From: Verrucomicrobiota bacterium
GTDB taxonomy: Bacteria; Verrucomicrobiota; Verrucomicrobiia; Limisphaerales; UBA8199
Assembly (NCBI GenBank): GCA_029974925.1
Contig: JARKQH010000425.1
Span: forward strand, 1-46,185
Reading direction: 5' to 3'
Length of the DNA stretch: 46,185 bases
Positions within the stretch are counted from its first letter, which is position 1. Every line of letters begins with the position of its first letter. The translations under genes and the position numbers were made by a program. Shown piece by piece: positions 6,287 to 9,411 of this stretch. A model generated the notes under the pieces. It had not been told where the DNA came from and did no database searches. It was given only the letters and a program-made list of their open reading frames with translations.

Positions 6287-6299
6287 GTAGTTTAACTCC
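6287..6299 (+). promoter_or_regulatory. C-protein operator candidate, upstream (activating) site
   Basis: The 13-mer GTAGTTTAACTCC is an odd-centred inverted repeat with one mismatch. It matches 12 of 13 bases with the perfect copy 37 bases downstream at 6324. Its centre is about 44 bases upstream of the C-gene start codon. If transcription starts at that codon, an activator bound here would sit next to RNA polymerase at a promoter with no recognisable -35 box. The role is inferred from known controller-protein systems. Confidence 0.65.
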
Positions 6300-6323
6300 G
6301 TGGTAGAAGCTTTGGTTCGACTG

Positions 6324-6336
6324 GTAGTTTAACTAC
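6324..6336 (+). promoter_or_regulatory. C-protein operator candidate, promoter-proximal (repressing) site
   Basis: GTAGTTTAACTAC is a perfect inverted repeat (GTAGTT, T, AACTAC) and ends one base before the GTG start codon of the C gene. It contains TAGTTT at 6325-6330, correctly placed to be a -10 box for a leaderless transcript starting at 6337. Binding here would block the promoter, giving negative feedback. The function is inferred; the sequence symmetry is directly visible. Confidence 0.68.
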
Positions 6337-6555
6337 GTGATCGAACGATTCCTTGGACGGCGTATCGCGCAGCTCCGCAAGGCCCGTGGGTTGACGCAAG
6401 AAGCATTCGCGGAGAAATGTGGGTATTCCACCGAATTTGTCAGTCTTGTTGAGCGTGGCCTGAACGCCCCCTCAGTCGCTGGGCTGGAGAAGGTGGCCAA
6501 AGCCCTCAAGGTGGAAATCAAGGACCTCTTTGATTTTACGAAAGGGGACAAGTGA
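6337..6555 (+). CDS. Controller (C) protein of the restriction-modification system, XRE-family HTH
   Basis: A 72-residue single-domain helix-turn-helix protein. The signature runs from GRRIAQLRKARGLTQEAFAE through STEFVSLVERGLNAPSVAGL to a short acidic/hydrophobic end (EIKDLFDF). This is the size and pattern of the controller proteins of type II restriction-modification systems, which bind short palindromes, first activate and then repress their own gene, and so delay endonuclease expression until DNA is methylated. The GTG start at 6337 follows immediately after a perfect palindrome and has no ribosome-binding site, so the message is probably leaderless, as known for several C genes. Its stop codon overlaps the GTG start of the endonuclease gene. 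A phage-type repressor is less likely given this context. Confidence 0.9.
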   Translation: MIERFLGRRIAQLRKARGLTQEAFAEKCGYSTEFVSLVERGLNAPSVAGLEKVAKALKVEIKDLFDFTKGDK

Positions 6556-7382
6556 ACGCATACGTCACGCGCCTTCGGAGTCTGCTTGAACGGATTTCTC
6601 AAGATGTGGTGCCTTCCACCCCAGTTGTACAGCAGAAGCCCCGGGTCCCAACTCAGGCTTTCTCGGAGTTCCTCATCAACCGGGAGCTTGGAGACTGGGC
6701 GGAGGAGGTTGTCCGTCGCGGTGTCAACGACTCAGGTTTGCCAGTCGTTGCGCTGCCCTACGGGCGCACCGGGAACCTCGTGGCTGGCGAACCCGGTTTT
6801 GCTGATTTCTTCCTTGACTATCATGAAGAACTTCGCACCTTGGGCAAGCGCCCCGATTTGCTGATTTTCCCCGCCGGCAAGGCTCCTGCCGCTGATTGGA
6901 TGGGGAAGCCCGCCGCCGAATTGGTTTCGGTCGCCAGCCAAGCCGTCGCCGGCTTTGAAGTCAGATGCAGCCAGCAATCTTTGACCGGCACCCGCACTCC
7001 GGCGGACCTGAGTTTCACCCCGAAAATTGAAGACATCCGGAACGTGATGCGGTGGATTGAGCGGCATGGTGTGCCGCACTTTTACGTGCAGGTTATCTTC
7101 GGCGCAGCCTACGCCCTTTCCTTTGAACGCATCCTCGAGCTGCTGGGTGTTGGGCCCAAGGCCGGCGGTTACACCATCGCCCGCGAGCCGCGAAACCAAT
7201 TCAAAGCGACCGTCTATGTTCCGCTCGACAAAGGGGTGTGTCTCTCGACTCGTTTTCAGGACCCGGACCTTGCTGCGTTCAGGAAGCAGCTCTCTTCAGG
7301 TCGGATGCTCTTTGGTGTTAAATTCTCGGGCGGCCTCTTGGAGTTCGACAAGCAGAAGCTCTCCAGCCTGCTCAAAATCTGA
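6552..7382 (+). CDS. Type II restriction endonuclease, AccI-like family
   Basis: A 276-residue protein whose GTG start overlaps the C-gene stop; GGGG five bases upstream serves as ribosome-binding site. A PD-(D/E)xK-like nuclease core is visible: KRPDLLIF at about 99-106, then FEVR at 135-138, with Arg in the usual Lys position. The following segment (SFTPKIEDIRNVMRWIE, then VPHFYVQVIFGAAYALSFE) resembles endonucleases annotated as the AccI family, from memory of that family. AccI itself cuts GTMKAC; the specificity here cannot be read from sequence. Position beside a C gene and a methyltransferase makes the endonuclease role firm even if the family name is wrong. The gene is translationally coupled to the C gene and overlaps the convergent methyltransferase gene by 11 bases. 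Confidence 0.85.
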   Translation: MNAYVTRLRSLLERISQDVVPSTPVVQQKPRVPTQAFSEFLINRELGDWAEEVVRRGVNDSGLPVVALPYGRTGNLVAGEPGFADFFLDYHEELRTLGKRPDLLIFPAGKAPAADWMGKPAAELVSVASQAVAGFEVRCSQQSLTGTRTPADLSFTPKIEDIRNVMRWIERHGVPHFYVQVIFGAAYALSFERILELLGVGPKAGGYTIAREPRNQFKATVYVPLDKGVCLSTRFQDPDLAAFRKQLSSGRMLFGVKFSGGLLEFDKQKLSSLLKI

Positions 7383-9015
7383 CGGCGAGGAGTTCCGGCA
7401 GCATCTGGTCTATGGCCCCTTGTCGTTGGCCATTCTCCAGCCGGTCCAGTGCCAGCATTCGCTCAAACAACTGATCCAGTTCCTGCTCGCTCAGGGAAGG
7501 CATCTCCGGGCATGGCATTGCTTCCACGTCCTTCGGTTCCAGCTTGTGGAGACCATCACCGTAAAAGCGGTTCACCTCGAAGAAACTCCTGCGCCCTGCC
7601 GAACTGTTGAGGAAGAGCGTCATGAGCAGCCGGTGTGCTCTGTAGTCCCTCTTGCCGTACAGGCCGTGAAAGCAAGTCAGGTTCCTGGTGTTGGTTTCGT
7701 TGAGGATGAACTTGACCGATTCCCGCGAGAACACTCCAACCCAAATATCCGCCGGTCCCCGGTTCTCCGGCAGATACCAAACCGGCCGGTGGCTCGGCAG
7801 ATAGCGATCCCGCACCCCTTGTTTTTCCCCCAGGGCCAGATAGGCGCCCACGGCCTCATCCACCTGCTGGGGATTCAACAGGAAACAGCGGCGGTCTTGC
7901 TTGACCAGTTCCGCGAATTTCCTCTCGGTAAAAATCAGCCCGTCAACGTCCGTCGCTTTGGTAATGCACGGTTCGCAATGCTGGCGTCCAAGTCCATGTG
8001 CCGCCAGCTCGGCCGGCGTCAGACAAAAATAGTTGTTGGCCCCTGTGGCGATTCCGCGCAGACACCGGAAATAGTCCCCAACCACTCGCGGCAGGCTGTG
8101 GCCTTTGCTCTGGGCTGGCATGAGGATTTGGTTCAGCCACTTTTCGCCGGGCGCATGCGCCGCCAGGTTCAGGTAAAGGGAGCCTCCCTTCGCGTTCGGG
8201 TGGGGTCTCTCCGCGAGCAAGTCCTCGAGGAAAGAACGCACGTCTTCCACCGACCGTGCCCGCACCGAGTGTATGGCTGCGCCTTGGGGGCGCCCCTTCT
8301 CCAAGAACAAAACACAGGATGTCGTCAGGGCTTGATCGAAGACGTTGTGGCGGGGGTCAAAAACGGCGATCCCGGCGGGTCGAACCGACCGGACGAGCCT
8401 TTCCTTGATTTCGGTGCCAAAATTGGCGTTCAAAAACTCAGCAGGCACGATGACCGAGGCCCGACCTCCGGGAGCCAGGTCCTCCCAGATTTTTAGAAGA
8501 AACAACCCGTACAGGTTTGTCAGGCGGTCGAGATGGGTGCCAAACCGCTCTTCAAAGTACCTCCAATCTGACTCTCCAAAATCCAGATGATGAGCCTTAA
8601 CATAGGGCGGGTTCGCAATAATGCCGTCGAACCAGCCGGCGTCCAACCTCAAATAGTCGCCACAGATGAGCTTCGTTTTAGGCGGCGCACACTGAACCGC
8701 CTCCTTGAAAGTGTGCGGGTCTCGCTCGACGCCCAGGTATTCTGCCGACGCGTGCAACAACCAGCACTGGTGCAGCAAGTGTCCCAAGCCAACCGCCGGA
8801 TCGAGGATTGTCCCGGGCTCCCTCGAAACCACCCATCGGGCGAGGATATCCGCAATTTCCGGTGGCGTGAACACCTGGCCGAGGGATTTTGCACTGCCTC
8901 GACCGGTCCGCTGCGGTTCGGTGCGAGTGAACGGGTCCACCTGTCCCGTGGCCATCTCCACCACCCCTGGCTGGTAATAGAGCGAAAGAAACCGCTGATT
9001 GTCGCGAACTTCCAC
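7372..9015 (-). CDS. Type II DNA N6-adenine methyltransferase
   Basis: A 547-residue gamma-class methyltransferase. Motif X is GQVFTP (residues 46-51), the AdoMet-binding motif I is DPAVGLGHL (72-80), and the catalytic motif IV is NPPY (135-138). That order is typical of N6-adenine enzymes of the TaqI/AccI sort. The C-terminal half should hold the target-recognition domain (for example YFRCLRGIATGANNYFCL near the middle, a pattern common to TaqI-like C-terminal domains). It protects host sites from the endonuclease at 6552. The GTG start at 9015 was chosen because an in-frame TAG lies just upstream, within the operator-like palindrome at 9031-9043. The C and endonuclease genes are convergent with it, the arrangement described for Esp1396I. 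Confidence 0.92.
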   Translation of the reverse strand: MEVRDNQRFLSLYYQPGVVEMATGQVDPFTRTEPQRTGRGSAKSLGQVFTPPEIADILARWVVSREPGTILDPAVGLGHLLHQCWLLHASAEYLGVERDPHTFKEAVQCAPPKTKLICGDYLRLDAGWFDGIIANPPYVKAHHLDFGESDWRYFEERFGTHLDRLTNLYGLFLLKIWEDLAPGGRASVIVPAEFLNANFGTEIKERLVRSVRPAGIAVFDPRHNVFDQALTTSCVLFLEKGRPQGAAIHSVRARSVEDVRSFLEDLLAERPHPNAKGGSLYLNLAAHAPGEKWLNQILMPAQSKGHSLPRVVGDYFRCLRGIATGANNYFCLTPAELAAHGLGRQHCEPCITKATDVDGLIFTERKFAELVKQDRRCFLLNPQQVDEAVGAYLALGEKQGVRDRYLPSHRPVWYLPENRGPADIWVGVFSRESVKFILNETNTRNLTCFHGLYGKRDYRAHRLLMTLFLNSSAGRRSFFEVNRFYGDGLHKLEPKDVEAMPCPEMPSLSEQELDQLFERMLALDRLENGQRQGAIDQMLPELLAVRF

Positions 9016-9030
9016 GCCAATAATCTGAAA

Positions 9031-9043
9031 GCAGTTAAACTAC
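9031..9043 (-). promoter_or_regulatory. C-protein operator candidate at the methyltransferase promoter
   Basis: On the minus strand this reads GTAGTTTAACTGC, 12 of 13 bases identical to the perfect palindrome at 6324-6336. It ends 15 bases upstream of the methyltransferase start codon and contains the same -10-like TAGTTT. A single site at this place predicts simple repression of the methyltransferase gene by the C protein, as established for Esp1396I. Confidence 0.65.
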
Positions 9044-9411
9044 GTGTAAAGGGAAATATGCCCCGCTTGAAAATGGCAAGCCCTTGCCCTGTTGATTACA
9101 TCAGACCTGCTTTCGCCCCGGGAGGGGCGCGACCGTCTTGCGCACGCTGCCCCGCCGCCGCGCCGCCCAAGGACTGAAGGGGCTGCCTCCTGGCTCCTCG
9201 TTGAGTGACTGCGGCGGTCATCCTCTTGGCGGCTTCCCCCTTCTTGTCGGAAAGAGGTCCGGGTCCAAACTACGCGTGCTCACGATCCACCCAGCCTTTC
9301 CCACCACCGGGCATCCGACGCTTGCCATCGCGGCGGGGATGCCTTAGAGGTAAGCGCTGCCGGGCGGTTTTTCTTGCGAGTATCAGCCGGGCTGTAAACC
9401 ATCAAAACGAA
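9044..9411. other. Intergenic region between the restriction-modification module and fabI
   Basis: No gene is supported here. The first 60 bases are AT-richer and belong with the methyltransferase promoter; from about 9115 the composition returns to that of the host chromosome, so this is a likely boundary of the acquired module. No direct repeats or attachment sites could be found by eye. Confidence 0.4.

What the first reader, a model, noticed from the sequence alone, without database searches (positions are those of the whole stretch)
6287..9043. Three matching palindromes predict the regulatory logic of a C-controlled type II restriction-modification module
A 13-mer of the form GTAGTT-T-AACTAC occurs at 6324 (perfect), 6287 (one mismatch) and, inverted, at 9031 (one mismatch). 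Two copies precede the C-endonuclease operon and one precedes the convergent methyltransferase. This is the layout established for Esp1396I-like systems, where C activates and then represses its own operon and represses the methyltransferase. The palindrome sequence itself may be a new C-protein specificity. The match of sites to promoters is seen; the roles are inferred.
Basis: partly seen in the sequence, partly recalled or inferred. Interest (0 to 1): 0.72.

Follow-up and report, generated by a model that had tools for sequence, protein, structure and literature searches.

The report
Controller-protein switch in AccI-like restriction system
Three copies of one DNA palindrome mark the switches of a bacterial DNA-cutting defence system, and because eight related systems in other bacteria keep all three in the same places, they are almost certainly the sites where its small controller protein sets when the cutter and the protective methylase are made.

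Summary
Confirmed and strengthened. GTAGTTTAACTAC lies at 6324 (exact), 6287 and 9031 (one mismatch each); the 5.73-Mb genome has no other site with one mismatch or fewer. The genes are a 72-aa C protein (GTG start directly after the 6324 copy), a shortened AccI-family endonuclease (PF09545) and a convergent gamma-class N6-adenine methylase. Eight relatives (seven from the same order or class, one Acidobacteria MAG) carry the same genes and all three operators: two 36-37 bp apart, the proximal one touching the C start codon, the third always in the -35/-10 spacer of the methylase promoter. A WOR-3 module with the same enzyme families but canonical C recognition residues lacks the palindrome and has a near-canonical C-box. 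Best reading: C activates C-R from the distal site, represses it from the proximal site, and represses M from the third. Binding and all regulatory effects are inferred, not shown. It works like Esp1396I but differs in operator sequence, spacing and position of the proximal site (on -10/start codon, not -35), and lacks the extra helices of the widely spaced Csp231I class. New variant of a known kind.

The parts
6287..6299 (+). Distal operator OL, GTAGTTTAACTCC, followed by the conserved CGTGG; centre 44 bp before the C start codon
   Evidence: present in 9 of 9 loci 36-37 bp from OR
6324..6336 (+). Proximal operator OR, GTAGTTTAACTAC, abutting the C start codon
   Evidence: abuts the start codon in 9 of 9 loci, GTG in 7 and ATG in 2
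6325..6330 (+). Putative -10 of the C-R promoter, TAGTTT, inside OR and preceded by TGG (extended -10-like); no recognisable -35
   Evidence: inference, no transcription start was mapped
6337..6555 (+). C gene: 72-aa XRE/Cro-type controller protein, GTG start, five helices
   Evidence: PF01381; C.AhdI best by profile; model pLDDT 90.5, C.AhdI Z 13.6, rmsd 0.8 over 65 residues
6552..7382 (+). R gene: 276-aa AccI-family endonuclease, GTG start overlapping the C stop by 4 bases; lacks about 95 central positions of the AccI profile; PD...EVR active-site residues present
   Evidence: PF09545 E 8e-54; gap between profile positions 142 and 237; invariant P101, D102, E136; model pLDDT 88.3; nearest folds are Hjc-type resolvases, weak
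7372..9015 (-). M gene: 547-aa gamma-class N6-adenine methyltransferase (NPPY, TaqI-like), convergent with R, ends overlap by 11 bases
   Evidence: PF02384 and PF07669; M.TaqI E 9e-13; sequence
9031..9043 (-). Methylase operator OM, GTAGTTTAACTGC, inside the -35/-10 spacer of the M promoter
   Evidence: same place in 9 of 9 loci
9045..9050 (-). Putative -35 of the M promoter, TTTACA (TTGACA, TTGACC or TTGACT in relatives), one base before OM
9020..9027 (-). Putative -10 region of the M promoter (CAGATT at spacer 17 or GATTAT at spacer 19)
   Evidence: inference

Best explanation
This is a C-protein-controlled type II restriction-modification module with an AccI-like endonuclease. On entry into a new cell, M is made at once from a promoter with a good -35. 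The C-R promoter has no recognisable -35 and is weak. As C dimers build up, one binds the distal site (centre about -44 if transcription starts at the start codon) and helps RNA polymerase start the C-R message, which is probably leaderless. At higher C levels a second dimer binds the proximal palindrome, which covers the -10 region and touches the start codon, and shuts the operon down. A dimer on the third palindrome, in the spacer of the M promoter, represses M. Shown here: the genes, the sites, their uniqueness in the genome, and their conservation in place across nine loci. Inferred: that C binds them, and each regulatory effect.
For: Sites unique in the genome. Nine loci with this C family have the same genes and all three sites (27 of 27 within 2 mismatches of GTAGTTWAACTAC). 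Three of these (Acidobacteria locus L027, G296, G492) were found through the endonuclease, not through the operator. The tandem pattern occurs in 7 of about 630 genomes of the order and class, each time at such a module, and the reversed control pattern never. OR abuts the C start codon in 9 of 9 even when the codon is ATG; OM always begins one base after the -35. M promoters match TTGACA in 5-6 of 6 bases, C promoters in at most 4 at any usable spacing. Natural contrast: the WOR-3 module L028 has the same enzyme families and layout, but C residues HRTYIS...NRN as in C.AhdI/C.BclI, no GTAG palindrome, and CACTTATAGTC upstream, one base off the canonical GACT-tat-AGTC. Two phage contigs encode C-like regulators with VETVSHIERG / IETISHIERG helices, close to the window's TEFVSLVERG, and have a perfect GTAGTTAAACTAC upstream. 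Of 25 other AccI-family loci only one has a site within 2 mismatches.
Against: No binding, transcription-start or activity data exist. The core of OL matches the palindrome less well than OR or OM in most loci, which does not by itself fit 'OL binds first'; with flanks counted the order varies. The C -10 is a weak match. Five of the nine loci were collected by the tandem-operator pattern, so their OL and OR are not independent evidence (their OM, gene content and start-codon contact are).
Confidence: 0.82

Rival explanations
1. C is only a repressor: it damps its own operon from both sites and M from the third, with no activation step.
For: OL's core is the weakest site in most loci, and OR on the -10 would by itself repress. 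The phage relatives have just one site, which suits simple autorepression.
Against: Strict 36-37 bp spacing puts OL at about -43/-44, a usual activator position, and the C-R promoter lacks a -35 in all nine loci while the M promoters have one. Studied C systems with two operators activate from OL (PMC4041747, PMC4824078).
Confidence: 0.13
2. OR works as an elongation roadblock, as in Kpn2I: transcription starts upstream of OR and C bound at the start codon stops the polymerase. (This could go together with activation from OL.)
For: OR touches the start codon. Kpn2I's C site lies at the start of its own gene and acts as a roadblock (PMC6237814). In L027 a TATAGT lies just upstream of OR.
Against: Eight of nine loci have TGG before OR, giving an extended -10-like TGGTAGTTW 6 bases before the start codon, and there is no room for a ribosome site between OR and the codon. 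Both point to a leaderless start at the start codon.
Confidence: 0.15
3. The palindromes are bound by a host regulator, not by the module's C protein.
For: No binding experiment excludes it.
Against: The genome has no other good copies. The sites go with the module between phyla (L027) and are replaced when the C recognition residues differ (L028).
Confidence: 0.02
4. Chance repeats with no function.
For: None beyond the short length.
Against: Shuffle test, genome uniqueness and conservation in nine loci.
Confidence: 0.005

Closest known systems
Esp1396I (C.Esp1396I; OL, OR, OM)
   Same: C-R operon convergent with M; two operators before C-R and one before M; small C protein of the same fold (Z 12.0)
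   Different: Operators are GACT-type and adjacent within 35 bp with OR on the -35 (PMC4041747, PMC3758141); here GTAGTTWAACTAC, 36-37 bp apart, OR on the -10 and start codon. Enzymes here are AccI-like.
Csp231I / EcoO109I (Sorokin motif 8)
   Same: Two widely spaced palindromes upstream of C (15-bp sites with an 18-bp spacer in Csp231I, so 33 bp centre to centre; 7 bp more in EcoO109I; PMC4321490, PMC3115060)
   Different: Operator CTAAG-N5-CTTAG; C has two extra C-terminal helices; no C binding found at the M promoter (PMC4824078). Here C has 72 residues and five helices, and M has its own operator.
Kpn2I
   Same: C site at the start of the C gene
   Different: No obvious paired inverted repeats, acts as a roadblock (PMC6237814); here clear palindromes, one of them well upstream
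AccI restriction enzyme family (PF09545)
   Same: R belongs to the family by curated score (183.5 against a cut-off of 22)
   Different: About 95 central positions are missing; most full-length relatives found here have R and M in tandem without a C gene of this type
Phage XRE regulators on L093/L185 and L186
   Same: 44-48% identical regulator and the same palindrome upstream of its gene
   Different: A single site, and no endonuclease of this module beside it

Membership tests
C-protein-controlled type II R-M systems | Small HTH controller of the C-protein fold | tested here: met
   (C.AhdI Z 13.6, rmsd 0.8)
C-protein-controlled type II R-M systems | C gene precedes the endonuclease gene in one operon | tested here: met
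   C stop and R start overlap by 4 bases; co-transcription itself not measured
C-protein-controlled type II R-M systems | Inverted-repeat operators before C, conserved in relatives | tested here: met
   Nine loci
C-protein-controlled type II R-M systems | Leaderless C message (common, not universal) | tested here: inconclusive
   OR abuts the start codon and leaves no room for a ribosome site, but no start was mapped
C-protein-controlled type II R-M systems | C activates at low level and represses at high level | not testable with these tools
   Needs reporters or in vitro transcription
Esp1396I-type | Convergent M with its own C operator in its promoter | tested here: met
   OM in the -35/-10 spacer in 9 of 9 loci
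Esp1396I-type | GACT-type boxes with OL and OR adjacent within 35 bp | tested here: not met
   GTAGTTWAACTAC, 36-37 bp apart
Esp1396I-type | DNA-contacting residues R35, T36, Y37, R46 (PMC4041747) | tested here: inconclusive
   By alignment to C.AhdI and C.BclI the window family has T/V, E, F and N at the matching places, but the direct alignment to C.Esp1396I was not printed
Csp231I/EcoO109I (motif 8) | CTAAG-N5-CTTAG operators | tested here: not met
Csp231I/EcoO109I (motif 8) | Two extra C-terminal helices | tested here: not met
   72 aa, five helices
AccI endonuclease family | PF09545 over the curated cut-off | tested here: met
   183.5 bits against 22
AccI endonuclease family | Cuts GTMKAC | not testable with these tools
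   GTMKAC is absent from the window and rare in the genome, but also rare in some relatives without the family
Sorokin's ten C-motif classes | Operator equals one of the ten listed motifs | not tested
   The paper is not held; only motif 8 and the GACT class could be read in other papers

The most novel reading that the evidence does not exclude
A separate class of controller proteins with its own operator (CACGTAGTTWAACTACGTG-like), in which the repressing operator is fused to the -10 and the start codon of a leaderless message, and two short C dimers 36-37 bp apart (about 3.5 turns) act without the side-by-side contact of Esp1396I or the extra helices of Csp231I; its DNA specificity is shared with phage regulators, so module and prophage may affect each other.
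Probability: 0.35. Interest if true: 0.6.

Novelty: new variant of a known kind. Interest (0 to 1): 0.47.

Why it matters
It gives a complete, testable three-operator switch for an AccI-like system, with a different operator and geometry from the studied classes. A natural pair (same enzyme families, two C proteins with different recognition residues and different operators) makes the recognition code of C proteins directly testable. The operator shared with phage regulators offers a second case for cross-talk between a restriction controller and prophages, like that shown for a C protein and the Rac prophage (PMC11014345).

Tried and rejected
Exact tandem pattern in viral contigs: no match. 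Plasmid collection with R: no match; with C: only regulators under 51% identical, of which the Geobacillus one has a different palindrome, ACGAAGTAATACTTCGT. Avoidance of GTMKAC as proof of the endonuclease's target: rejected, because some relatives with no AccI-family gene are as depleted. Predicting which operator binds tightest: no stable order among 21 sites. Sorokin 2009 and Bogdanova 2009 are not held. The fold search with the R model gave only weak resolvase matches.

Full report
Observation. The three 13-mers are present at the stated places and with the stated mismatches. They exceed chance in the window (9 matches with up to 3 mismatches on both strands, expected 0.91, maximum 4 in 100 shuffles) and are the only copies with one mismatch or fewer in the 5.73-Mb genome.

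Genes. C (6337-6555) is a 72-aa XRE/Cro-type protein; a profile of its relatives finds C.AhdI first and C.BclI second among solved structures, and the predicted model (pLDDT 90.5) superposes on C.AhdI with Z 13.6 and 0.8 A over 65 residues (other XRE proteins score similarly, so the fold alone does not single out C proteins). R (6552-7382) is an AccI-family enzyme (PF09545, E 8e-54) that lacks roughly profile positions 143-236 but keeps residues invariant in the family, including P101, D102 and E136. M (7372-9015, minus) is a gamma-class N6-adenine methylase, nearest solved relative M.TaqI. C and R overlap by 4 bases, and R and M by 11 bases tail to tail. The module has 58% G+C against 66-67% on both sides, which suggests acquisition from elsewhere (inference).

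Relatives. A search with R found an Acidobacteria MAG locus (L027: C 68%, R 61%, M 48% identical) and a WOR-3 locus (L028) with the same layout. A family search in the phylum found G296. A tandem-operator pattern in the order and class found four further order members and one class member, each of which proved to hold C, R and convergent M. G492, found through R and missed by the pattern, has all three sites as well. In all nine loci of this C family there are three operators within two mismatches of GTAGTTWAACTAC: OL and OR 36-37 bp apart, OR ending at the base before the C start codon (GTG in seven, ATG in two), and OM one base after the -35 of M. In five loci OL and OR were what the search asked for and so are not independent; OM, gene content and the start-codon contact were not searched for. 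In L027, G296 and G492, found through R, all nine sites are there.

Operator. Half-sites from 21 operators give CACGTAGTT as the consensus, with G, A, G and T at core positions 1, 3, 4 and 6 nearly invariant. OL always carries CGTGG on its right side although no start codon is there, so that flank probably belongs to the site (inference). Predicted strengths do not order OL, OR and OM reliably.

Promoters. M promoters have -35 hexamers matching TTGACA in 5-6 of 6 positions at one fixed place, and mostly an extended -10 (TGG before the hexamer) 17 bp downstream, with OM filling the spacer; in the window itself the -10 is weak or at spacer 19. C promoters have no comparable -35 (at most 4 of 6 over five spacings) and an extended-10-like TGGTAGTTW inside OR in eight of nine loci. 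If transcription starts at the start codon, OL is centred at -43 or -44. That is the pattern expected of a promoter that needs an activator at OL and is shut by OR, and of a strong M promoter that C represses.

Specificity contrast. The WOR-3 module has the same enzyme families in the same layout, but its C has HRTYIS...NRN at the recognition helix and the following loop, as C.BclI (HRTYIS...DRN) and C.AhdI (DRSYVG...QRN) do, and it has CACTTATAGTC upstream instead of the GTAG palindrome. The window family has (T/V)EF(V/I)SL...(L/I/V)N(A/S)P there. Two phage contigs encode regulators with VETVSH/IETISH...HGP and have a perfect GTAGTTAAACTAC upstream. So operator and recognition residues change together. 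This is the best computed evidence that C itself reads the palindrome; it is still correlation.

Comparison with known systems. The logic equals that of Esp1396I, where C activates from OL, represses from OR and also binds OM before a convergent M (PMC4041747). The geometry does not: Esp1396I's two sites are adjacent in 35 bp and OR covers the -35 (PMC3758141). Wide spacing is known from Csp231I (33 bp centre to centre) but with CTAAG-N5-CTTAG, two extra C-terminal helices, a proposed looped tetramer, and no C binding at M (PMC3115060, PMC4321490, PMC4824078). A C site at the gene start is known from Kpn2I, where it acts as a roadblock (PMC6237814); this is kept as a rival for the action of OR. 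Leaderless C messages are common in such systems (PMC4824078).

Novelty. The 13-mer (with either centre base) is in no held paper. The ten motif classes of Sorokin 2009 could not be read in full, so the operator may coincide with one of them. With that reservation it is a new variant of a known kind.

Limits. Nothing here measures binding or transcription. Avoidance of GTMKAC, which would have supported an AccI-like target, is strong in the window and genome but also present in some relatives without any AccI-family gene, so it is not used as evidence.

Noticed in passing
window 1-46185; whole genome G000: GTMKAC has no occurrence in the window (about 15-17 expected) and CAGCTG none (about 13 expected); genome-wide there are 28 GTAGAC (both strands) and 37 GTCGAC in 5.73 Mb. 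Some relatives without AccI-family genes are equally depleted.
   Followed up: partly
L185 (same contig as L093) and L186, upstream of the C-like gene: Phage contigs (L186 with terminase and portal genes) carry C-like regulators with a perfect GTAGTTAAACTAC (extended CGTAGTTAAACTACGTG) upstream; possible cross-talk with the R-M controller.
   Followed up: partly
L042 3439-4092 (G296): An extra 217-aa ORF lies between C and R, weakly similar to SwaI endonuclease (PF22081, below cut-off): perhaps a second enzyme under the same controller.
   Followed up: no
window R and M against L027 and the order members: R of the window is closest to the Acidobacteria locus (61% against 34-36%), while M is closer to the order members (54-57% against 47%): the enzymes may have different histories.
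   Followed up: no
G000:C25 1385-2191 (L025, L043): A second, distant AccI-family endonuclease (27% identical) with its own methylase, with no C gene of this type detected.
   Followed up: no
L050 1967-3651 (G439): M is split into pieces by apparent frameshifts while C, R and all three operators are intact; may be an assembly error.
   Followed up: no
L266 2960-3159 (G492): A second fragment of R lies next to the intact one.
   Followed up: no
L264 3417-3433 (Geobacillus plasmid pEF60063-2): A 51% identical C-like protein between a Dam-type methylase and an endonuclease has a different perfect palindrome, ACGAAGTAATACTTCGT, upstream.
   Followed up: no
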